DNA of 64,000 nt from assembly GCA_043820025.1 (NCBI GenBank), contig JBDRED010000028.1:18434-82433 (forward strand), in the 5' to 3' direction. Each line of letters begins with the position of its first letter. Position 1 is the first letter of the stretch. The DNA comes from JBDRED01 sp043820025 [NCBI: Elusimicrobiota bacterium]. GTDB taxonomy: Bacteria; RUG730; JBDRED01. The notes beneath the pieces are model-generated. The model ran no database searches. It saw only the letters and a program-made list of their open reading frames with translations, and was not told where the DNA came from. Positions 52,297 to 63,769 of this stretch are shown in pieces. A program made the position numbers and the translations under genes.

Positions 52297-55200
52297 TTAA
52301 AATATTATAGAAACATTTACGCTTAACGCAAATGCCCAAAAATCTCCTTTGTCAAATTCCGGATAATGCGCATAAGTAAAGGTTGCGCCAATCTTTGTCT
52401 TAACATTCTTACTTGCTTCATAATCAACATCTGTTGACCATGAATACCTGTTTTCATTATCCGTTTCAACATTAAGCGAGCTCCTCTTAAAATCCGCTTT
52501 TATTGTGCTGTCAATTATAAGCCTGTTGTCGAACTTAAGGTAAATACGCGTAAGCGGCAGTTTTACGGCTGTAGGCAGAGCAAAATCAGCCCTTGTCTGA
52601 ATACTCGCCGAACGCGTTGTTATATCTTGAGTAAGCTCCTGATTTATATTTCTTTCTTCTGAAAAACTCTCGCCATATTTCGGCGTTATACGCCAAGGGC
52701 CATACTGCATTCCCACCTGCATTGACCTTGACATTGCGTTGCCGTTTCTCGTTATCTTTTGCTGTATAATATCAAAGTCCTTGTCCCAGCTCTTATTATA
52801 GTCTAGAGAAATTTCAAATCTGCTGAATAAATTAAATCTGTATGACCCGCCTGTATTATATTGATCCTTCATTGATATTCTAAATGTCTCGATTGTCTTA
52901 AATAAATATTTGCCGGACACCTTGCCATTTGTTATATATTTTGATAAAAATAACATTTTTTCAATTTCATCCATACTTGCCAAGACATCCGGGTATACTA
53001 TTGTCTGCGTTTCTTCAACTGTGCCTGTCACCTCTTTCATATCGTCTATCTTGCTATAGTTAACCGTTGTGTCTAATGTGGATATGGGGCTTAGCTTATT
53101 TTGTAAATTTAAAAACGCTAATGGCTGCCATTTCCCCGTAAGCCTTACTGTATCGCGCAATGATTTTGAAACCCTATTGTATTTATTATTAAACTCATCA
53201 ACGCCATGAACATTACGAATAAAGAATTTATCCCAAACAATGTAATCCTTATCAACATTATCCCACCTGTCGCTGTCGTCTAAATTATAACTGCCGGAAA
53301 AATTAAGCGAGGAAACAGGAGAACACCATCTCCACGGCAAAAACTTTTTTACAGACAAGGACGCGTTAACAGCTCCTCTTGATTCGCGGCTGATGTTTTT
53401 TGTTGTAAGTTCTACGCGGCCTGTTTCCGTGCTCATATCCTGGGTATAATTATAATCCTCGCCCACACTCATTTGATAAGAAACCGACGGATTAAACCAT
53501 CTCTCTAAAAGAAGAATCCTGGACGTCACGCTCGCGCTATAATCAGCGGATTTATCATAATAATTCATATCGCCCGACATAAGAGACTTTCTTTCCTTTG
53601 TCTTAGTATATCCGGCAGACGGGTTAAGAGTAAGGAGCCATGGAACATTAAACTGCGTCTCAGCATTATAATTATCTGTTGTCTCAAGCAGAGCCTCATA
53701 ACCTCTGGTTGGAGTCGTAGCCCTAAAGACACCGTATTCCGTCCATTTATTTGAGTGGCCATAACTACCGCTGACATTCTGAGGCAAAAAGCTTCTTATA
53801 AAACCCGGCAAAAGCAGAAATCTTCGAGGCACACTATAAGAAAACCCTGAAGTATAGCTCTCTGTTTCATCCTTACGGTTTAAACGTTCCGTCTCATCAA
53901 TACTTCTTAGCGCTGTTCCGGTAAATACCGGCAGATATTTTAGTTTTAGGCTTCCGCCGACTTTCCCGCTCTCGCTTCGAACCAAACCCTCTTCTTCAAT
54001 ACTCGCGTTTGTTTTTTGAGCGTCCGGTATATTACTCTCTGACTTAATATACTCCGCGTTAAGAGGCATAAAACTTATTCTATTAAACAGCATATTTGCT
54101 CCATAAGCATCCTCTTCCCTGCCTGAAGTAATACTGCTTGTGCCTACCAATTCCCCTTCGCTCGTGCCTGTTGTGATTTTTTCAAAATCAGCGTCAATGT
54201 GTTTGTAATGCCCGCTCACATCCATCCATCCGGGCAGAGAAATATCGGCCGCAGTTTTATACGCGATTCCTTCCTTGCGTTTAACGTCTTCTAAATATAT
54301 ATCATTAATCATTAGTTCGCCTTTTGTTATGGTAAAGTTTGTATAGTTGCCCACGCCTATTCTCACATCAGTGATGTTAGTCAGCCTAGGCGCGCCTTTA
54401 TAACCGGTAAATCCGTCGGGAAACCCGTCTAAATCCTTATCTTCCAGTTCAATCTCTATGGTTTTCCATCCTGTCCATGTAACCGTTGTGTCCCATATAA
54501 AATAATTACTTTCCCCTGCTCCTACTTTCATATACATGTTTTCCCCGCTGTTATCTCCATATACAAAAAACACGAGACGCCTATACGCCGAGAAATCCTG
54601 CGCGCGCCCAAATTGATAGAGAGTATAACCATTATCTCCGGGCGCTAAATTTTCATATTCCAAAAGCAAAGCCTGCTCATCTTCATCCTCATACAACTTG
54701 CCTTTATACAGCTTTTCTGCGAGCGTTTTTTTAATGTCTTCGAGCTTATCCGTATAATTTGAATTAATCTTTTCATTTACAGCCTGCACGCGCATTGTGC
54801 CGGCAGATGTTGCAGGCGTTATGATTGGTTTTTCCCAGTTAGTATTAACGCTTCGCAGTCCGGCAAGTTTTATCTCGCCATTAATCGCGAAACCTGTCGT
54901 GTTTTTTATCGTTAGCCTGACATGTTTTATTGCCACCCAATTATTGGAATTCGCTGCCGTAATATTCATCGGAGTAATAAACTGCTTCCAGCCTGACCAG
55001 CTGACACCGTCAAATGTCTGTCCGTTTTCTGCGACAATAGTATTTAAGCCGCTGCCATTCGTTCCATACGAAGAACCCATCAATGGGTCGCCGTTGGATA
55101 AAATACTGTCTCCATCCAGGTCTTCTGTGTCTATCTCTCCGTTATCCGGACGTATTCTTGCATACGGTTCATTTAACGGATTATATTCCCATCCTATATC

Positions 55201-57471
55201 CTCTCCTCTATTTAAAGTTCCATCATGGTTTACATCTTCAGTATCCAGCACATTATCCTGGTCCACGTCCTCGGGAATAACTCCGTAATCAATAAACACA
55301 TCCTCTCCTTTATTGTCTCCGTAAATGGCAAGCTCCATAAATTCCTTTTGCGAATAATCTGATCCGATATTTGATATAGGATACATGATCGCGGCCTCTT
55401 CGCCCGCTTCGAGGCTGTAACCAACTTTAAGAACCTGTTCCTTTTTCTCATTATCATCAAGATTAGGATTAATATCACTAGCCGGGATTTCTTCATCATC
55501 CCAGGTAATATGCGTAGTATTAGGAGAGACCCCTGAAAGAGTTCTCGCTATCCTCCATGAATCCCCATTCATTGGCACATTGTCCTCAAACTTTATGCCC
55601 TCCATATTATCAATAAGCGCCTTGCCTTCAATATTCGGATCCTGCCAGCTCTTAGCGATTTCTCCTCTTAACGTAGTCTTTATCGGCATCCATCTTGGCT
55701 CTAAATTAATCATTGTGTCAGCGTCAATTATTGTTACGCTCTTTGGAGTTGACCGTATTTGCGGAATAGCCGCGCTTTTTGACGACCTGTTATCAATAAC
55801 TGTCGCGCCGATAAACCCGTCATGCGGCAGGTCGTATGTTGTGCGCAAACCAACAAGCGTCTGCTGGTATTGCCCGCCAAAAGGCATGTATTCGTATGTT
55901 ACCGTAATCTTGCTATCCTTGCCTATACTGCCCTCATTCATAAATGTAATAAATCCGATATCATAGTCTATAATATAATCAACATCCCTAGCCAAAACAT
56001 TTCCGTCTATCTCAATACGCTCCGACCCGATTACAAGATTAGGCCTTACGTTAAATGTTTTTATTCTATGATAATACTCTGTATAGATTATGTAATGATG
56101 CTTCGCGCTGTTTACGTCATAAATGTCAGGGTAATCAGTTGAGAAAGGCTTATCTGAAACAAAATCCATAATACCTGTGTCAAAATCAATATTAACTTTA
56201 TCGTATATATTTTCCCAGCCGGGGACAGCGTCTCTATTCTGGTCAATTATTTTAACTATAAAATCGCGGCCAAGCGTTCCTTTAATAATTTTTCTATTGC
56301 CTAAGTAATAGTAATTTTTTTGTTCCTGCGCGCCGGCAACCTGAGCAGTCTCAGGCGCATCCTTTAAAAGCACACAATCATTTTCTGAACCGTTTGCGAA
56401 CCACGCGCTGTCACCCTTTTTCTTATAATTTATTGCAATAATATACCCCGGGTCGATCGTTGTCTTAAAGCTAATTATATTTTTGGCAAAATCGATTGTG
56501 TAATCCCGGCCCGGATATTGCAGATCAAAGTAATAAGTCGCATCGCTCGCAAGCGATCCGTTTATATATTTTAATGCCGCCCTCTCTGCGCCGCTGTAAT
56601 TATTATTGCCGTTTCTATCGTCAATATAAACCTTAATATTTTCTATATTGCCGTCAGGCTCTATATTGCCAAATCTCAATGAGTAATGTTTTCTGCGCAT
56701 GTAAGAGGTATCGAACATGTCCTTTTTTTCAAAGGTTGTGTTTCCGGAAAACCGTTTTGTTTCTGTAATACCCTTTGTGCGCGACGCAATACCCATCATA
56801 CCAAGCTTATTGTATTTCGCCTTAAATCTTAATCCGAACAAGTTTTTATTATATCCGACAAATTCCGTAGAAGGCAGGCTTAGATTAATATCTCCAAAAG
56901 CTATTTCCTCTATAACCTCGTCATTTTCAGCCACTGCTCCATAATCATCGATTATATCGCCTTTCTTATCCCCCCTATAAACCACTGATATATCGCGTTT
57001 ATTAGTTGTCTGGTCGTTATAATCAACATCAACCGATATCTTTCTCCCAACCTTGCCTTTGATCTTTACCTGTAATTCCTGCGTCATATCAAAACCTTTT
57101 GTTACGCCTGCGGGAGTGCCGCGCTTCTCGCCTTCATCTTTGTCATTATAATTAACAAACCCATATTTAATCCCTATAGATTTTTGTCCCGAAATACTGA
57201 GCTTTGACTGATATGGCAGGTCAAATGTAAAGCCTTCTTCCTGTAAGGCTTCATGAAGCGTGCATGTAGAAAATGCTGTCTCTATTTGCATCTCCGGAAT
57301 TTTTTTGGGCGAATAAGCGCTTTTTTCTTTTTCTTTACGCATGCGTTTCCAGTAAGTTCTATTTAGTTTTATATTTGAATCTGAAACCACGCCTGTGCCA
57401 TATACCGGGAATATTGCGCTTACCCAGAAAACATAAAGCAGGATTATTGTGATGAGTTTATTTTTCAGCAT
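52297..57471 (-). CDS. SprA/Sov-like giant outer-membrane protein (type IX secretion translocon family)
   Basis: The 1724-residue protein has a signal peptide (about residues 1-25). It then has the features of SprA: KLSISGQKSIGIKYG, a repeated GFDMTQELQVKIKGKVGRKISVDVDYN segment, and IEEIAFGDINLSLPSTEFVGYNKNLFGLRFKAKYNKLG. These are the beta-strand patterns of the Bacteroidota SprA N-terminal domain. Acidic repeats (DVNHDGTLNRGED) and many C-terminal strand-like segments follow, ending SVNVSIIF. SprA is the outer-membrane pore of type IX secretion. No other core T9SS genes occur here. It leads an operon with an LptE-like lipoprotein and comFC. The promoter is nearly leaderless. Confidence 0.7.
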   Translation of the reverse strand: MLKNKLITIILLYVFWVSAIFPVYGTGVVSDSNIKLNRTYWKRMRKEKEKSAYSPKKIPEMQIETAFSTCTLHEALQEEGFTFDLPYQSKLSISGQKSIGIKYGFVNYNDKDEGEKRGTPAGVTKGFDMTQELQVKIKGKVGRKISVDVDYNDQTTNKRDISVVYRGDKKGDIIDDYGAVAENDEVIEEIAFGDINLSLPSTEFVGYNKNLFGLRFKAKYNKLGMMGIASRTKGITETKRFSGNTTFEKKDMFDTSYMRRKHYSLRFGNIEPDGNIENIKVYIDDRNGNNNYSGAERAALKYINGSLASDATYYFDLQYPGRDYTIDFAKNIISFKTTIDPGYIIAINYKKKGDSAWFANGSENDCVLLKDAPETAQVAGAQEQKNYYYLGNRKIIKGTLGRDFIVKIIDQNRDAVPGWENIYDKVNIDFDTGIMDFVSDKPFSTDYPDIYDVNSAKHHYIIYTEYYHRIKTFNVRPNLVIGSERIEIDGNVLARDVDYIIDYDIGFITFMNEGSIGKDSKITVTYEYMPFGGQYQQTLVGLRTTYDLPHDGFIGATVIDNRSSKSAAIPQIRSTPKSVTIIDADTMINLEPRWMPIKTTLRGEIAKSWQDPNIEGKALIDNMEGIKFEDNVPMNGDSWRIARTLSGVSPNTTHITWDDEEIPASDINPNLDDNEKKEQVLKVGYSLEAGEEAAIMYPISNIGSDYSQKEFMELAIYGDNKGEDVFIDYGVIPEDVDQDNVLDTEDVNHDGTLNRGEDIGWEYNPLNEPYARIRPDNGEIDTEDLDGDSILSNGDPLMGSSYGTNGSGLNTIVAENGQTFDGVSWSGWKQFITPMNITAANSNNWVAIKHVRLTIKNTTGFAINGEIKLAGLRSVNTNWEKPIITPATSAGTMRVQAVNEKINSNYTDKLEDIKKTLAEKLYKGKLYEDEDEQALLLEYENLAPGDNGYTLYQFGRAQDFSAYRRLVFFVYGDNSGENMYMKVGAGESNYFIWDTTVTWTGWKTIEIELEDKDLDGFPDGFTGYKGAPRLTNITDVRIGVGNYTNFTITKGELMINDIYLEDVKRKEGIAYKTAADISLPGWMDVSGHYKHIDADFEKITTGTSEGELVGTSSITSGREEDAYGANMLFNRISFMPLNAEYIKSESNIPDAQKTNASIEEEGLVRSESGKVGGSLKLKYLPVFTGTALRSIDETERLNRKDETESYTSGFSYSVPRRFLLLPGFIRSFLPQNVSGSYGHSNKWTEYGVFRATTPTRGYEALLETTDNYNAETQFNVPWLLTLNPSAGYTKTKERKSLMSGDMNYYDKSADYSASVTSRILLLERWFNPSVSYQMSVGEDYNYTQDMSTETGRVELTTKNISRESRGAVNASLSVKKFLPWRWCSPVSSLNFSGSYNLDDSDRWDNVDKDYIVWDKFFIRNVHGVDEFNNKYNRVSKSLRDTVRLTGKWQPLAFLNLQNKLSPISTLDTTVNYSKIDDMKEVTGTVEETQTIVYPDVLASMDEIEKMLFLSKYITNGKVSGKYLFKTIETFRISMKDQYNTGGSYRFNLFSRFEISLDYNKSWDKDFDIIQQKITRNGNAMSRSMQVGMQYGPWRITPKYGESFSEERNINQELTQDITTRSASIQTRADFALPTAVKLPLTRIYLKFDNRLIIDSTIKADFKRSSLNVETDNENRYSWSTDVDYEASKNVKTKIGATFTYAHYPEFDKGDFWAFALSVNVSIIF

Positions 57472-58781: not shown

Positions 58782-58811
58782 GGGGACAGTCCCTATTCAG
58801 GGACAGTCCCC
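58782..58811. repeat. GGGGACAGTCCC pair between dut and guaB3
   Basis: One unit with half-sites at 58782-58793 and 58800-58811, separated by TATTCA. The half-sites face each other and can pair. Confidence 0.75.
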
Positions 58812-58820
58812 TAGAATTAT

Positions 58821-59258
58821 TTATTTTGTTCCTGTACTGCCAAACCCGCCTTCGCTTCTCGTTGTATCGTCTAAGTTGTTGTGTTCGTCCCATTCAATAA
58901 ATTCAATCTTTTTTAAAACTGCCTGAGCTATTCTCTCGCCGGATTTTATTTCTACCGGCTCATCAGGGTTTGAATTAAAAATTATAATTCCTACTTCGCC
59001 TCTATATCCGGCGTCAATTGTGCCAGGCGTATTTAACAGAGTAAGTCCTCTATTTATCGCCAAACCGCTTCTTGGCCTTATTTGGAGTTCATAGCCATAC
59101 GGTATCGCAACCTTAATACCTGTTGGCAACAACGTTCTGCCGTGCGGAGGAATAACAGTATCATCCCCCATATTAACAAGGTCCATACCGGCATCTCCGT
59201 CATGCTTATATATAGGAAGCGGCGTATTCTCTCGAACTCTTTGTATTTTTACCTTCAC
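58821..59258 (-). CDS. dut: dUTP diphosphatase
   Basis: The 145-residue trimeric enzyme hydrolyses dUTP to dUMP. It has GDAGMDL, RPRSGLA, NTPGTIDAGYRGEVG and the C-terminal RSEGGFGSTG, the five conserved motifs. It is surrounded by class III RNR genes and is probably co-transcribed with them. Confidence 0.96.
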   Translation of the reverse strand: MKVKIQRVRENTPLPIYKHDGDAGMDLVNMGDDTVIPPHGRTLLPTGIKVAIPYGYELQIRPRSGLAINRGLTLLNTPGTIDAGYRGEVGIIIFNSNPDEPVEIKSGERIAQAVLKKIEFIEWDEHNNLDDTTRSEGGFGSTGTK

Positions 59259-59280
59259 AAGATCCTCCCGTTTTTTCAGA

Positions 59281-59388
59281 GGGGACAGTCCCCGAGTCCG
59301 GTCCTTTCGGCTTCTCAGAGGGGACAGTCCCTGTTCAGGGACAGTCCCCGAGTCCGGTCCTTTCGACTTTTCAGAGGGGACAGTCCCC
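59281..59388. repeat. GGGGACAGTCCC array between the small glycyl protein gene and dut
   Basis: Four half-sites occur at 59281-59293, 59320-59331, 59338-59349 and 59376-59388. The linker reads CGAGTCCGGTCCTTTCG. No gene is in this spacer. Confidence 0.8.
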
Positions 59389-59422
59389 GAGTCCGGTCCT
59401 TTCGGCTTCTGAATTCTGTCTT

Positions 59423-59719
59423 CTATATGTTGTAATTCCCTTTTCTTCTATCTCTTAATTCGCCCAGTTTTGATTTATTCCAGTTAGATGTCTTGCTGAA
59501 ATATCCGACTATTCTTGTAATACCGTCCAGCACCTGCGGTTCGCGGCCGCGCATTACGCTATAAATATTTTCCCAGTCAGACGCATCAATTGATGATTTA
59601 TTTATTCTATATTTCTCATCACGCGTTTTATTATAAATAATATAACTATCTTTAAATTCCTGTTTAATCTCTAAATCTTCCGCGCTATTTACCTTTTCTA
59701 AAAAATCATTGCTGGACAT
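59423..59719 (-). CDS. Small protein carrying the glycyl-radical motif of class III ribonucleotide reductase
   Basis: The 98-residue protein has about 60 unfamiliar residues followed by ITRIVGYFSKTSNWNKSK and LGELRDRRKG. This matches the C-terminal glycyl-radical segment of NrdD (E. coli RVCGYLG with its radical Gly681). The expected radical glycine here is G72. The neighbouring NrdD lacks that segment, so this protein is likely the missing tail. It starts behind AGGGGGT at good spacing and lies between nrdD and dut. The N-terminal part may dock to NrdD. Confidence 0.7.
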   Translation of the reverse strand: MSSNDFLEKVNSAEDLEIKQEFKDSYIIYNKTRDEKYRINKSSIDASDWENIYSVMRGREPQVLDGITRIVGYFSKTSNWNKSKLGELRDRRKGNYNI

Positions 59720-59756
59720 ATTAACCCCCTAAAAAAATTTCTTTCGGCTTCTCAGA

Positions 59757-59841
59757 GGGGACAGTCCCTGTTCAGGGACAGTCCCCGAGTCCGGTTCTTT
59801 CGGCTTCTCAGAGGGGACAGTCCCTGTTCAGGGACAGTCCC
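59757..59841. repeat. Two tandem GGGGACAGTCCC units between nrdD and the small glycyl protein gene
   Basis: Half-sites occur at 59757-59768, 59774-59785, 59813-59824 and 59830-59841. The two units are almost identical. Each unit can fold on itself. Confidence 0.8.
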
Positions 59842-59861
59842 CGAGTCCGGTTCTTTCGGCT

Positions 59862-62207
59862 TTATTCTACCCTCATTACTCCGGGCACATTCGCAGAGCC
59901 GCAGTATGAACATACATCTTTTAATCCGCGCATGCTCTTGTGACAATTGCTGCAAATTGAAAACTCTGGCGACACAACTATCTGCGCAGCTTTTGTATTA
60001 TACCAAGTTTTTTTAACAAGGTTAAGTATTGATTCCGGAGCAGGCTGCTGTTCGCCGACAAATGCGTGTATAATCGCGCCTGCCGCAATCATGCTGTGAA
60101 ACTTTGCGAGCTTTTCAATGCGCTCTATAATACTCATTTGCGTGCTTGCCGAAAAATGCACGCTGTTGGTGTAATAAAACATATCTTCGTCGACAGATCC
60201 CTTTAAAACCGACTTTGTTTGTTCGGAGAACTTCTCCATATCTATCTTTGCCATTCTGCGCGCCGCAGATTCCGCGGGCGATTCCTCGAGAACAAACTTA
60301 AGCTTATGCTTTTCGCCAAGCTGATTAATTTTAATAAACATATGCGACACAATCTTGAGCCCGAGCTTAAAGGCGTCATCGCTTTCATGCAGCTGCTGTC
60401 CAACAAGAAACTGAACCGCTTCATTTAGGCCTATCATTCCCATAATATACGAAGCCTTTTCAAGATCAACGTACGGAAACCCGTCGAACACCTCTTTGCC
60501 AATCTGCCAGAGCGGAAGGCCTCTTCTCAGCATAAGCTTATGAATAAATTTCTTTTTCTGCAAATGCGCCTTTACGCATATATCCATCATATCCAAAACT
60601 TCATTTATCATTCCGTCAATATTGCCCTTGCCTGCCCTATAAGCTGCCTGAGGCAGATTTATGGTAACATTCTGGAATCCGCAAAAACGCATGCTCTCAG
60701 GATGTTTAATCATACGCTTATCAAACTCGTCAGAAAGGTTTAATGTTGTTCTAAGCCTGCAGCACTGCGATAATGTTACCTCGTCCCTGTCAAACACAAA
60801 GTATGGAGAACCGTTTTCACTTGATATCTGACACGCGTATTCCAGTATCTCATACTGCGCAGGTTCGTCGAGCGTTGCCTGATTAATATGCAGATCCATC
60901 TTTGGAAATTCAAATACCTGGCCATACGCGTCTCCCTTTCGCCATACATCCATCATAGCGCGCGCGAACATCTGCGCTTCTTTTTCATACTCGCCATAAT
61001 TTTTGCCTGTATACTTGCCGCCGGGCCCGATCGCAGGAACATCCTTTAAGTATTCCGGCACGCCTGTATGGATATTAAAATCAATAAACAATGTCTGGCC
61101 GCCTCGAGAGAACGCGTTCTGCGCGCAGCTGTATATTAAATACTGCGCCTCCTGGACAAGCTGTTCATAAGTATATCCTACAACATAAGGAGCATACGCG
61201 ATATTAGTATACGCGATCCCCAGCGCGCCTGCGTAATACGCCTGCATGGACGCAAGGAATGTATTCAAATGGCCTGTTAATGTATGCGCGTGCCTCGCAG
61301 GCGAAGAAACAATATTTAAATTTTCAAGCTCAAGCCCGTATTTTTTTATATATTCGAGCGAATGCGTACTGCAATAAACGCGCGTAGGATAACCAAGGTC
61401 ATGCAGATGAATCGCGCCAGAATAATGCGCGTTTGCCACATCCTCGGAAAAAATATTATGCAGCGCGTACTGCTTTAATATTATCTCAGCTATTGCAAGG
61501 TTAACCGCCTCAGGATTATTAGCGGCCAAGTTACTGTTCTCCTGGCTTTTAGAAAATATTAATGATTCTAAATTATATATTGGTATGCCAAGACTTGTCT
61601 GCTTCTGCATCTTTTTTTCATAGCCCAAAACTACCAGCTCGTGATCTACCAGCTCTCGTATAAGGCTCGTAGTTACCTTTGTTATTTGCGAAGCTATTAA
61701 TTTTTTTTCAACGCGCTGAGCGATCTCGCCGGCAACCTTTAAAGGAATACCCGCTTCCTTCTCAAGCGCAGCCGCGATCTTTGACTTATTCCATGGGATA
61801 ATCTCGTCCTCAGACTCAGTCACAACCAGGAGCGCTATATCGGTAGAATTCGAATTTTCTGTTCTAGACTTTGAAACAGTAAGTTTCTTTTTCATCTTCT
61901 GTTTCATTTGATGGTGATGCCTATACGCTTTTGCCGTTAACGCGTAGTCATCGTGCTTTAACGCGAACTCCATAGCATTAGCAATTGTATCAGCTGATAG
62001 TGTTTCTCCGGGGAAGAATCTCTCTTTTAAATAATTTTCAACATTATCCGCGAGCTTTAATGAAATCAGGCGTGTTACCTCGCCTGTTATCTCCCCCACA
62101 TTTAAAAGCACCTTTGCGATCTTGCTTTTACTGTATGGCACAACCCGTCCATCACGTTTGCGAACTGATGAAAAATATTTTGTCTCTTTTTTCTCTGCGA
62201 CCGCCAT
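59862..62207 (-). CDS. nrdD: Anaerobic ribonucleoside-triphosphate reductase, large subunit truncated before the glycyl-radical motif
   Basis: The 781-residue class III RNR reduces NTPs to dNTPs without oxygen. It has two N-terminal ATP-cones (about residues 10-100 and 125-215), each with VPYSKSKIAKVL-type sequence. The catalytic domain has RHAHTLTGHLNTFLASMQAYYAG and the FVFDRDEVTLSQCCRLR cysteine region. The C-terminal zinc site is C752, C755, C766 and C769. It then ends at residue 781. The usual RVxGY radical segment that follows the zinc site is not present but is encoded by the next gene. Neighbours are nrdG, a redoxin and nrdR. Confidence 0.92.
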   Translation of the reverse strand: MAVAEKKETKYFSSVRKRDGRVVPYSKSKIAKVLLNVGEITGEVTRLISLKLADNVENYLKERFFPGETLSADTIANAMEFALKHDDYALTAKAYRHHHQMKQKMKKKLTVSKSRTENSNSTDIALLVVTESEDEIIPWNKSKIAAALEKEAGIPLKVAGEIAQRVEKKLIASQITKVTTSLIRELVDHELVVLGYEKKMQKQTSLGIPIYNLESLIFSKSQENSNLAANNPEAVNLAIAEIILKQYALHNIFSEDVANAHYSGAIHLHDLGYPTRVYCSTHSLEYIKKYGLELENLNIVSSPARHAHTLTGHLNTFLASMQAYYAGALGIAYTNIAYAPYVVGYTYEQLVQEAQYLIYSCAQNAFSRGGQTLFIDFNIHTGVPEYLKDVPAIGPGGKYTGKNYGEYEKEAQMFARAMMDVWRKGDAYGQVFEFPKMDLHINQATLDEPAQYEILEYACQISSENGSPYFVFDRDEVTLSQCCRLRTTLNLSDEFDKRMIKHPESMRFCGFQNVTINLPQAAYRAGKGNIDGMINEVLDMMDICVKAHLQKKKFIHKLMLRRGLPLWQIGKEVFDGFPYVDLEKASYIMGMIGLNEAVQFLVGQQLHESDDAFKLGLKIVSHMFIKINQLGEKHKLKFVLEESPAESAARRMAKIDMEKFSEQTKSVLKGSVDEDMFYYTNSVHFSASTQMSIIERIEKLAKFHSMIAAGAIIHAFVGEQQPAPESILNLVKKTWYNTKAAQIVVSPEFSICSNCHKSMRGLKDVCSYCGSANVPGVMRVE

Positions 62208-62228
62208 AATCCCTCCTTAGTTTTCAGA

Positions 62229-62298
62229 GGGGACAGTCCCTATTCAGGGACAGTCCCCGAGTCCGGTTCTTTCGGCTTTTTCAGAGGGGACAGTCCCC
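62229..62298. repeat. GGGGACAGTCCC copies between nrdG and nrdD
   Basis: Half-sites occur at 62229-62240, 62247-62258 and 62286-62298. The last is only 5 bp beyond the nrdG stop. No gene is in this spacer. Confidence 0.8.
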
Positions 62299-62302
62299 TC
62301 GT

Positions 62303-63001
62303 TCAATTCCTGCGCTCAATATTTGGCATTATCTTTTTTATATCATCCAGCCATTCTTCTAATAATTTTAAACCATATGGTTTTACTTTACTAAAATTAT
62401 CATCAAGCGCGTTTTCAGGATTAAATCCCTGCCACGTCCAAAGCTTCGCGTGCTTAATATGCCCGGCTATATTTATTAAATCATCTTTTTCAACCAGTTC
62501 AGGCACAACTGTAGTTCTAAACTCATACTGAATATCAGACGAAATCACAAACTTGATAGTCTCAAAAACATTCTCTAAAAGCGGATTAGCGCCTGCTGAC
62601 TTTGCATACCTATGCTCAGTTAATCCGGACTTTATATCCATAGCAATAAAATCAACAAGCGTAGATTTAACCAGTTCCTTCACGAGCTCCGGGTTTGTTC
62701 CATTAGTATCCAGCTTAACAAGAAGGCCTTTGTCCTTAACTCTTCCAATAAACTCCGGCAGATCGCTTTGAAGGGTTGGTTCTCCGCCTGTTATTACAAT
62801 CCCGTCTATCCACTTTTTATGAGTTTCAATGTATTTAAACACATCCTCTTCTTTAACAACGCTAAGCTCAGGGTCATTAAAAACCAGCTCAGAGTTATGG
62901 CAGAATGGACATTTATAATTACATCCCGGGACAAACACGACCGAACAAATCCTGCCCGGCCAATCTATAAATGTATTTTCAATAAAACCTTTAATTAACA
63001 T
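62303..63001 (-). CDS. nrdG: Anaerobic RNR activating protein (radical SAM)
   Basis: The 232-residue radical SAM enzyme has the [4Fe-4S] motif C27-N-Y-K-C31-P-F-C34 and GGEPTLQSDL. It uses S-adenosylmethionine to make the glycyl radical on its partner. It is upstream of nrdD. Because the radical glycine is on the separate small protein, NrdG should act on that. Confidence 0.92.
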   Translation of the reverse strand: MLIKGFIENTFIDWPGRICSVVFVPGCNYKCPFCHNSELVFNDPELSVVKEEDVFKYIETHKKWIDGIVITGGEPTLQSDLPEFIGRVKDKGLLVKLDTNGTNPELVKELVKSTLVDFIAMDIKSGLTEHRYAKSAGANPLLENVFETIKFVISSDIQYEFRTTVVPELVEKDDLINIAGHIKHAKLWTWQGFNPENALDDNFSKVKPYGLKLLEEWLDDIKKIMPNIERRN

Positions 63002-63046: not shown

Positions 63047-63316
63047 CTATTCGAAAAATCCTCTAAATTCCTGCGAGACCGGCGATTTTTTTTCCCAGCG
63101 CGCGACCTCGCTCCCATCTTTTTCTATTATAGTTGTCGGCACATCGGTTGCATTAAGCATTGCGCCCTCTACAAGCCCTTCCGGCGTATCTAAATCGTAA
63201 AATGTGATATTTACTCCATCCTTTTTTTCCCAATGCGCTAAAAAAACATCAAATTTTTCCTTTACCTTTTTACATAAATCACAATTCTGTTTTCCAAATA
63301 TCTTTACTGTTACCAT
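63047..63316 (-). CDS. Glutaredoxin-like small redox protein
   Basis: The 89-residue thioredoxin-fold protein has the active site QNCDLCKKV (C12, C15) and the cis-Pro segment DVPTTIIEKDG. It lies between nrdR and nrdG. It probably supplies electrons to the reductase, as NrdH-like redoxins do. That role is inferred from position. Confidence 0.8.
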   Translation of the reverse strand: MVTVKIFGKQNCDLCKKVKEKFDVFLAHWEKKDGVNITFYDLDTPEGLVEGAMLNATDVPTTIIEKDGSEVARWEKKSPVSQEFRGFFE

Positions 63317-63769
63317 CTATACCCCCTGCTTTATCTTTTCTATCTCATTCAAAAATGTGCTTACGCTGTCAAACTGTTTGTAAACAGACACGAACCGCAC
63401 ATATGCAACCTCGTCGAGATTTTTGAGCTGTTCGATTATTTTATCGCCTATCTCTGACGATTTAACCTCTCTGACATAATCCTGAAGCTCATATTCAATA
63501 TCATTAATTATTTTTTCGATTGTATCAACAGGTATTGGCCGTTTTCTGCAGGCGTTTAAGACTCCGTCGCGTATTTTATTTCTATCAAAGGGCTCTCTTC
63601 TGCCGTCGCGTTTTACAACAGTTATAGGCATCATCTCAAGTCTTTCGTATGTAGTGTATCTTTTATGGCAGTCGACGCACTCGCGCCTGCGCCGCACAAC
63701 GCTAGATGCATCCAGAGGCCTTGAATCAATTACCATATCATTATTTGAATCGCAGTAAGGACATTTCAT
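63317..63769 (-). CDS. nrdR: Transcriptional repressor NrdR
   Basis: The 150-residue repressor has a zinc ribbon (C3, C6, C31, C34) within RRRRECVDCHKRYTTYERLE. An ATP-cone follows (VVKRDGRREPFDRNKIRDGV) that senses (d)ATP. It represses RNR genes by binding NrdR boxes. A strong palindrome of that type lies in its own upstream region, so it appears autoregulated with the nrd operon. Confidence 0.96.
   Translation of the reverse strand: MKCPYCDSNNDMVIDSRPLDASSVVRRRRECVDCHKRYTTYERLEMMPITVVKRDGRREPFDRNKIRDGVLNACRKRPIPVDTIEKIINDIEYELQDYVREVKSSEIGDKIIEQLKNLDEVAYVRFVSVYKQFDSVSTFLNEIEKIKQGV

What the first reader, a model, noticed from the sequence alone, without database searches (positions are those of the whole stretch)
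59423..62207. Class III ribonucleotide reductase appears split: the glycyl-radical segment is a separate 98-residue protein
NrdD (781 residues) runs through its zinc site (C752, C755, C766, C769) and stops 12 residues later. In known class III enzymes the zinc site is followed within the same chain by an RVxGY glycyl-radical segment. That segment is absent here. The next gene on the same strand encodes a 98-residue protein ending RIVGYFSKTSNWNKSK plus LGELRDRR, which matches it; predicted radical residue G72. This protein has its own ribosome site and a ~60-residue N-terminal part of unknown origin. A detachable radical subunit, comparable to the GrcA spare part of pyruvate formate-lyase, would change how the enzyme is activated and repaired.
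Basis: partly seen in the sequence, partly recalled or inferred. Interest (0 to 1): 0.82.

Follow-up and report, generated by a model that had tools for sequence, protein, structure and literature searches.

The report
Ribonucleotide reductase with separate radical subunit
This uncultured bacterium appears to make its oxygen-sensitive DNA-building-block enzyme as two proteins, with the radical-carrying tip as a small separate subunit, an arrangement that recurs in related bacteria, archaea and viruses and could let cells swap a damaged radical part.

Summary
The 781-residue NrdD (59862-62207, -) matches the class III reductase profile PF13597 up to position 539 of 562. The next gene (59423-59719, -, 98 residues) matches positions 532-561, with the predicted radical glycine G72. 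It is not an artefact: the same truncated NrdD plus small protein occurs in three related genomes, where the profile finds no full-length NrdD. Window, these three and one virus form a clade at 100/100. The small protein is under purifying selection, and its own N-terminal domain models with confidence. The same kind of split occurs in a Lokiarchaeon and in viruses. A second split, inside the zinc site, occurs in DPANN and Asgard archaea, some with three such radical proteins. I conclude that this is a two-chain class III reductase whose glycyl radical sits on a separate, obligate subunit. It resembles the GrcA spare part in architecture, but it is not a spare and not a GrcA family member. Exchange after oxygen damage is untested. 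A tethered model of a relative puts the segment in the usual place, with a low-confidence loop.

The parts
59862..62207 (-). nrdD core subunit, 781 aa: ATP-cone match in two stretches, barrel domain, complete zinc site, no glycyl-radical segment
   Evidence: PF13597 1-539/562 and PF03477 two stretches; TIGR02487 361.3 bits against cut-off 326.35
59901..59954 (-). zinc site C752/C755/C766/C769 of NrdD
   Evidence: sequence; C752, C755 and C766 invariant in alignment A5 of 25 rows
60759..60764 (-). C482-C483 of a QCCR motif, like the SCCR motif of Thermotoga maritima NrdD
   Evidence: C482, C483, R484, L485 invariant in A5; motif described in PMC4493059 (passages)
59423..59719 (-). separate radical subunit, 98 aa
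   Evidence: PF13597 532-561; conserved in relatives
59546..59719 (-). N-terminal domain of the radical subunit (residues 1-58), predicted a-b-b-b-a-a
   Evidence: AlphaFold2 pLDDT 86-91 in the blocks for residues 1-50, 78 for 51-60
59441..59536 (-). glycyl-radical segment (residues 62-93) with RIVGYFSKTSNWNKSKLGELRDR
   Evidence: Pfam match; R69, G72, Y73, S75, N79, W80, N81, S83, K84, E87, L88, R91 invariant in 9 sequences
59504..59506 (-). codon of predicted radical glycine G72
   Evidence: alignment to NrdD C-termini
59725..59730 (-). AGGGGG ribosome-binding site of the radical subunit gene
   Evidence: sequence
62303..63001 (-). nrdG activase (NrdG2 type, radical SAM), upstream of nrdD on the same strand
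   Evidence: TIGR02495 E 5.1e-57, 192.3 bits against cut-off 131.15
63047..63316 (-). glutaredoxin-like protein, probable reductant
   Evidence: weak Pfam matches PF05768 E 3.2e-4 and PF00462 E 0.0026, both under cut-off; homologue near nrdD in L001 and in Omnitrophota loci
63317..63769 (-). nrdR repressor
   Evidence: PF22811 and PF03477
58821..59258 (-). dUTPase, next gene downstream (context)
   Evidence: PF00692 E 1.1e-27
59742..59860 (.). 56-nt repeat units with GGGACAGTCCC filling the gap between nrdD and the radical subunit gene
   Evidence: a 24-nt form of the repeat is absent from all 161 loci held at the time

Best explanation
This is a functional class III (anaerobic) ribonucleotide reductase made of two chains. 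NrdD supplies the ATP cones, the catalytic barrel and the zinc site. The 98-residue protein supplies the glycyl-radical segment in trans. It docks with its C-terminal segment where the same segment lies in one-chain NrdDs, so that G72 reaches the active-site loop. NrdG, encoded in the same gene row, makes the radical on G72, and the neighbouring glutaredoxin-like protein probably re-reduces the active site. The extra N-terminal domain of the small protein is probably the grip that holds it on NrdD or presents it to NrdG. Shown: the split, its conservation, the homology of the segment, the absence of a detectable full-length copy in three relatives, and selection on the small protein. Inferred: binding, radical formation in trans, and the role of the N-terminal domain.
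For: Complementary profile coverage of the two genes. The same pair in G001, G002 and G003, where the NRDD profile at E <= 1 finds only the truncated NrdD and the small protein (in G003 NrdD lies on two contigs); 3 of 3 genomes held of that phylum carry the small protein. The window, these three and a virus NrdD form a 100/100 clade, all split. No class I/II reductase (PF02867, E <= 1e-5) in G002 and G003, so there the split enzyme is the only reductase found. Rough purifying selection: dN 0.32-0.61 (N-terminal domain) and 0.09-0.18 (radical segment) against dS of 0.84 or more, saturated in half of the comparisons. N-terminal domain modelled with confidence. In the tethered model of the L001 pair the aligned range 188-897 matches Prevotella copri NrdD 8p2s_B 85-735, rmsd 2.9 A over 553 residues, Z 33.6. 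Gene order nrdR-grx-nrdG-nrdD-small in the window and L001.
Against: No biochemical data. In the tethered model the blocks that hold the radical loop (861-880) have pLDDT 24 and 36; 22 of the 24 other rows of its alignment are one-chain NrdDs, which by itself pulls the segment to the usual place; and the alignment range does not tell whether the loop residues themselves are superposed. The small protein alone scores under Pfam's gathering cut-off. The N-terminal domain is less constrained than the segment (dN/dS about 0.68 for L001 against G003). Relatives are metagenome assemblies of unstated completeness. G001 also has class I/II reductase genes. In L002 no nrdR or grx was found in the 4 kb held upstream. 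The window's own genome is not held.
Confidence: 0.85

Rival explanations
1. Spare part in the strict GrcA sense: the small protein is a repair copy for a full-length NrdD that exists elsewhere, and the truncated NrdD here is a relic.
For: Architecture of an extra N-terminal part plus radical segment, as in YfiD/GrcA (PMC8683613, passages). No own genome held. Viral records G203, G204, G205 and G206 carry such a protein with no NrdD found in the same, possibly partial, record.
Against: No full-length NrdD found in G001, G002 or G003. The truncated NrdD is conserved and lies in an intact nrd gene row.
Confidence: 0.06
2. Assembly or sequencing artefact, or recent gene decay caused by the repeats between the two genes.
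For: GGGACAGTCCC repeats fill the gap right after ...VMRVE-stop.
Against: The split is present without these repeats in L001, L002 and G003, with gaps of 72, 129 and 31 nt; the small protein has its own start and ribosome site and an N-terminal domain conserved in these relatives.
Confidence: 0.02
3. The two genes yield one fused chain by recoding (frameshift or stop read-through) or by trans-splicing of a split intein.
For: In L001 and L002 the two genes happen to be in the same frame (gaps of 72 and 129 nt).
Against: Stops lie between the genes; the window and G003 gaps are out of frame; the small genes of window, L001 and L002 have a clear ribosome site and ATG. None of nine small proteins matches an intein family in Pfam at E <= 1, and NrdD ends directly after the zinc site.
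Confidence: 0.04

Closest known systems
One-chain class III ribonucleotide reductase (NrdD: phage T4, Thermotoga maritima, Prevotella copri, Streptococcus thermophilus structures)
   Same: Barrel, ATP cones, zinc site, NrdG activase, radical segment RxxGY...WN..K, nucleotide-metabolism context
   Different: The radical segment is on a separate 98-residue protein with an extra domain
YfiD/GrcA (and T4 Y06I), spare part of pyruvate formate-lyase
   Same: Small protein with an N-terminal part plus a glycyl-radical segment like the end of the big enzyme
   Different: Related to NrdD, not to pyruvate formate-lyase; not a duplicate, since NrdD lacks the segment; the N-terminal domain is predicted folded, while that of YfiD is reported disordered (PMC8683613, abstract passage)
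NrdJa/NrdJb split class II reductase (Pseudomonas aeruginosa)
   Same: A reductase split so that a C-terminal part with a zinc finger is a separate chain (PMC9669993, passages; PMC4520616, search listing)
   Different: Class II, B12-based; no glycyl radical is involved
Phage nrdD genes broken by introns, inteins or homing endonucleases
   Same: nrdD coded in pieces (PMC3653736, passages)
   Different: Most of those are interruptions by mobile elements; here the break is at the radical segment, no mobile element was seen in the gap, and the small piece has its own extra domain

Membership tests
Class III ribonucleotide reductase (NrdD) | NrdD profile match with barrel domain | tested here: met
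   PF13597 384.5 bits; TIGR02487 361.3 bits against cut-off 326.35
Class III ribonucleotide reductase (NrdD) | Four-cysteine zinc site at the C-terminus | tested here: met
   C752, C755, C766, C769 in the sequence; first three invariant in A5
Class III ribonucleotide reductase (NrdD) | Glycyl-radical segment in the same chain | tested here: not met
   NrdD ends at profile 539/562; the segment is on the next gene
Class III ribonucleotide reductase (NrdD) | NrdG activase gene nearby | tested here: met
   62303-63001, TIGR02495 E 5.1e-57
Class III ribonucleotide reductase (NrdD) | Glycyl radical and reductase activity | not testable with these tools
   needs EPR and assay
GrcA/YfiD autonomous glycyl radical cofactor | Membership in the pyruvate formate-lyase-type glycine-radical family (family recalled, not scanned by name) | tested here: not met
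   no such family among Pfam matches at E <= 1 for the nine small proteins; all nine match NRDD
GrcA/YfiD autonomous glycyl radical cofactor | Duplicates a segment that a full-length enzyme also has | tested here: not met
   no full-length NrdD found in G001, G002 or G003; not testable in the window's own genome, which is not held
GrcA/YfiD autonomous glycyl radical cofactor | Restores an oxygen-cleaved enzyme | not testable with these tools
   bench test only
NrdJa/NrdJb split class II reductase | Class II catalytic chain | tested here: not met
   catalytic chain is class III by profile, and the model of the L001 relative matches NrdD structures best

The most novel reading that the evidence does not exclude
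The radical subunit is truly exchangeable. When oxygen cuts the chain at the glycyl radical, only a roughly 11-kDa subunit is lost and replaced while the roughly 88-kDa NrdD survives. Splitting arose at two positions (after, or inside, the zinc site). Some Asgard archaea keep three paralogous radical subunits for one NrdD, and some viruses bring their own radical subunit to a host's NrdD. Radical storage in class III reductases is then a modular, regulated subunit, as in class I enzymes.
Probability: 0.3. Interest if true: 0.9.

Novelty: new variant of a known kind. Interest (0 to 1): 0.75.

Why it matters
[quoted passage not shown] PMC11226230), and oxygen cuts the chain there (PMC3019208; PMC2795772). 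A lineage with the radical segment on a separate small chain turns an old question (how anaerobes keep or repair such enzymes, and whether spare parts exist beyond pyruvate formate-lyase, raised in PMC8683613) into a direct test with two genes. It would also give a tool: an isolated glycyl-radical subunit for EPR, activation and exchange studies. Recurrence in bacteria, Asgard and DPANN archaea and viruses suggests that the split has a use rather than being an accident.

Tried and rejected
Fold of the N-terminal domain: Foldseek against PDB gave nothing better than E 0.38; VIA-align 2 gave only rows of Z 4.2 and below. No known relative was found and none is excluded. PHROGs: the window small protein has only E 0.062 (unknown function) and 0.068 (NrdD-like); the five other type A proteins have no match or unknown-function matches (best E 0.0088); type B L123 matches NrdD-like phrog_487 at E 4.6e-6.

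Annotated phages: for the window small protein the 20 listed of 30 records have E of 0.5 or more, so chance level (10 not listed, one of them ANMV-1); L121's protein finds none at E <= 0.1; L123's finds 39 records, 20 listed, of which 6 are annotated as anaerobic reductase and 14 have no annotation. I did not check these for splits. A viral scan with type B proteins gave 6 loci, all in records already found. tRNA and Rfam scans of the window gave two tRNAs and nothing near the finding.

Lokiarchaeon G004: type A by architecture, but its NrdD rows are not in the window's clade; the small protein lies upstream, not downstream, of its NrdD; the NRDD profile missed this small protein and the A2 alignment found it. 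G004 also has an NrdD cut by a contig end and a 98-aa frame covering profile 482-562, so a one-chain copy there is not excluded. I did not run the test that would decide between one and two origins of type A.

Trees: (69 rows; L052, L062, L097 dropped as too short) I labelled L136 (G210) and L054 fused; one search shows L136's record has its segment in a separate 51-aa frame, and L054's NrdD runs to a contig end. For one search I left out 33 of the 69 rows, among them these two, the long-branched L125 and L126, and many close Elusimicrobiota rows.

Papers: the listings (20 of 31; 4; 8; 40 of 57; 20 of 35; 15 of 25; 5), and the passages looked at, showed no NrdD with its radical segment on a separate chain; phage nrdD genes in pieces are described in PMC3653736. 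Most subscription papers are not held, so this does not prove absence in print.
Full report
Observation. One search gives the two ORFs on the minus strand as stated. Profile searches divide the NrdD family between them: PF13597 positions 1-539 on the 781-residue protein and 532-561 of 562 on the 98-residue protein; TIGR02487 gives 1-557 and 552-580 of 581. The coverage overlaps by about 6-8 positions: NrdD ends ...VPGVMRVE, the small protein has ...LDGITRIVGYF. So the small protein is not just the chopped-off end; both sides keep a version of the junction. The small gene has its own AGGGGG site. The 142-nt gap is out of frame, and reading on after a one-base shift meets two more stops.

Context. 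From upstream to downstream the row is nrdR, a glutaredoxin-like gene, nrdG, nrdD, small protein, dUTPase, and an IMP dehydrogenase/GMP reductase-family gene (the glutaredoxin matches are weak and under cut-off). L001 has nrdR, grx, nrdG, nrdD, small protein in the same order; in L002 only nrdG, nrdD and the small protein were found in the DNA held. The IMPDH-family protein of the window is 71-74% identical to G001-G003, 68% to an Omnitrophota genome, and 56 and 44% to two others, and NrdD is closest to the same three; the window probably belongs to or near that small phylum. Its own genome is not held.

Relatives. A scan of genome contigs with NrdD gave 53 loci. Reading their ends: 6 are split (L001, L002, L039, L011, L012, L014), 44 carry the segment in one chain, and 3 end too early to tell (L013, L047, L052). 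G003, the genome of L013, holds NrdD on two contigs and the small protein 31 nt behind it if it starts at its ATG. In G001, G002 and G003 the NRDD profile at E <= 1 finds only the truncated NrdD and the small protein (the same search rings in 9 of 14 control genomes). These three are the genomes held of their phylum, and 3 of 3 have the small protein. Class I/II reductase (PF02867, E <= 1e-5) is not found in G002 and G003 and is present in G001. Completeness of these genomes is not stated.

Two kinds of split. Type A (window, G001-G003, Lokiarchaeon G004, virus G202): NrdD keeps the zinc-site region, and the small protein has an N-terminal domain of about 60 residues and no zinc CxxC. G004 is the least clean case: it also has an NrdD cut by a contig end and a 98-aa frame covering profile 482-562. 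Type B (DPANN L011, L012, L014; Asgard; virus G207): NrdD stops after the first CxxC and the small protein holds the second, so that zinc, if bound, would be shared by the two chains (the sharing is inference).

Surveys with the five-sequence small-protein alignment A2. Asgard phylum of G004, E <= 1e-3: 23 of 195 genomes match; 9 have short frames of 74 aa or more (G004 type A; G089, G134, G166, G171, G185, G190, G192, G196 type B), 2 have frames of 45-46 aa that I did not resolve, and 12 lie in frames of 232 aa or more. DPANN phylum of G006, E <= 1e-6: 11 of 147 match, 6 with short frames (60-92 aa), 5 in long ones. Omnitrophota, E <= 1e-6: 10 of 193 match, all in frames of 587 aa or more. 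Eight type B cell genomes (G005, G006, G007, G089, G166, G171, G185, G196) show no PF02867 match, so their split enzyme may be their only reductase.

Several radical proteins per genome. Seven of the eight Asgard type B genomes have three matching short frames, and none of the eight shows more than one NrdD (none found in G134 and G190, part of one in G192). One copy is beside nrdD in the five genomes with a nearly complete NrdD and in G192. Other copies have repeated neighbours: a gene that looks like uvrA (L083, L103, L104), or roadblock-like genes (L080, L107, L112) (names read by eye, not by profile). Not all copies need be intact: the G166 copy in L104 has a stop within the matched stretch, and L082, L083 and L098 show no ATG before the motif.

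Viruses. Of 15 viral loci found with A2, L125, L126 and L127 have the segment in one chain, and L130 and L132 seem to. Ten records were searched with the NRDD profile. G211 (L131) is one-chain. G202 has an NrdD ending at profile 534, interrupted by other coding sequence, plus a type A protein about 5 kb away. G207 has type B (NrdD to 518, a 53-aa frame at 521-561). G210 has NrdD to 531 and a 51-aa frame at 534-560. G203, G204, G208 and G209 show only the small protein. G205 and G206 show no NRDD match; their small protein is seen by tblastn only. These records may be fragments.

Tree. With 36 rows and the radical segment left out, window, L001, L002, L013 and the virus NrdD L135 form a clade at 100/100; type B rows form one at 92/86 (not starred); the two Loki rows lie in a group with one-chain Omnitrophota and others (97/95). 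The fewest changes of state are 3. So splitting probably happened more than once, or was reversed.

Small protein. Alone it models with mean pLDDT 74.7: residues 1-50 at 86-91 per block, residues 61-98 at 47-62, as one would expect if that segment needs NrdD to fold. No fold match stands out. Its family profile finds P. copri NrdD in the PDB at E 0.0066, through the segment. Across window, L001, L002 and G003, amino-acid identity is 35-56% in the N-terminal domain and 76-88% in the radical segment; dN is 0.32-0.61 and 0.09-0.18, with dS 0.84 or more and saturated in 6 of 12 comparisons.

Docking. A complex of two chains could not be run. In L001 the two genes are in one frame, so the pair was folded as one tethered chain of 901 residues (mean pLDDT 76.7, pTM 0.68). 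The blocks with the radical loop (861-880) have pLDDT 24 and 36; the block with the last helix (881-890) has 78. The model aligns to P. copri NrdD 8p2s_B from 188 to 897, rmsd 2.9 A over 553 residues, and to other NrdD chains with ranges ending at 877-900; five further NrdD rows end at 736-737. So the radical segment appears to land in the known place. As 22 of the 24 other rows of its alignment are one-chain NrdDs, this agrees with docking but is weak proof.

Chemistry. The window NrdD has QCCR where T. maritima NrdD has SCCR; mutants of either cysteine there were inactive (PMC4493059, passages). Together with the glutaredoxin-like neighbour this points to a thiol reductant rather than formate (inference). 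In P. copri NrdD the radical domain is mobile and its order depends on what the ATP cone binds (PMC11226230, passages), which makes a separate radical chain mechanically plausible.

What is known. At the time of PMC8683613 only the spare parts YfiD and Y06I of pyruvate formate-lyase had been validated, and the authors suggest that others may exist (passages). A split class II reductase is known (PMC9669993, passages). The searches listed no report of a class III reductase with its radical segment on another chain; most subscription papers are not held.

Verdict. The finding is real and more general than reported. It is best described as an obligate two-chain class III ribonucleotide reductase. 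The GrcA comparison fits the architecture, not the role; exchange after oxygen damage is the open, testable part.

Noticed in passing
window 58783-62297: A GGGACAGTCCC palindrome occurs 17 times in the window against 0.01 expected; 13 of the 17 lie in the gaps between guaB-like gene, dut, radical subunit gene, nrdD and nrdG. None of 161 loci has a 24-nt form of the repeat.
   Followed up: partly
L078-L117 (Asgard genomes G089, G134, G166, G171, G185, G192, G196): Three separate short radical-segment frames per genome; copies away from nrdD keep similar neighbours across genomes, one set beside an apparent uvrA (by eye). Some copies have no clear ATG or a stop inside.
   Followed up: partly
L119, L120, L121, L122, L124, L128 (viral contigs): Virus records with a stand-alone NrdD-type radical protein and no NrdD found in the record, possibly a virus-borne part for a host reductase; the records may be fragments.
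   Followed up: partly
L118:10989-12273 and record G202; L039/L061: NrdD genes of a virus and a Lokiarchaeon are interrupted by long inserted coding sequence near the conserved C279 region, intein-like by eye.
   Followed up: no
L017, L019, L028, L031, L041, L043, L048, L053 and similar loci: One-chain NrdDs with a glutaredoxin- or thioredoxin-like stretch fused behind the radical segment (by eye).
   Followed up: no
window 52297-57471: A 1724-residue ORF on the same strand downstream of the nucleotide genes, with a signal-like start by eye; not examined.
   Followed up: no
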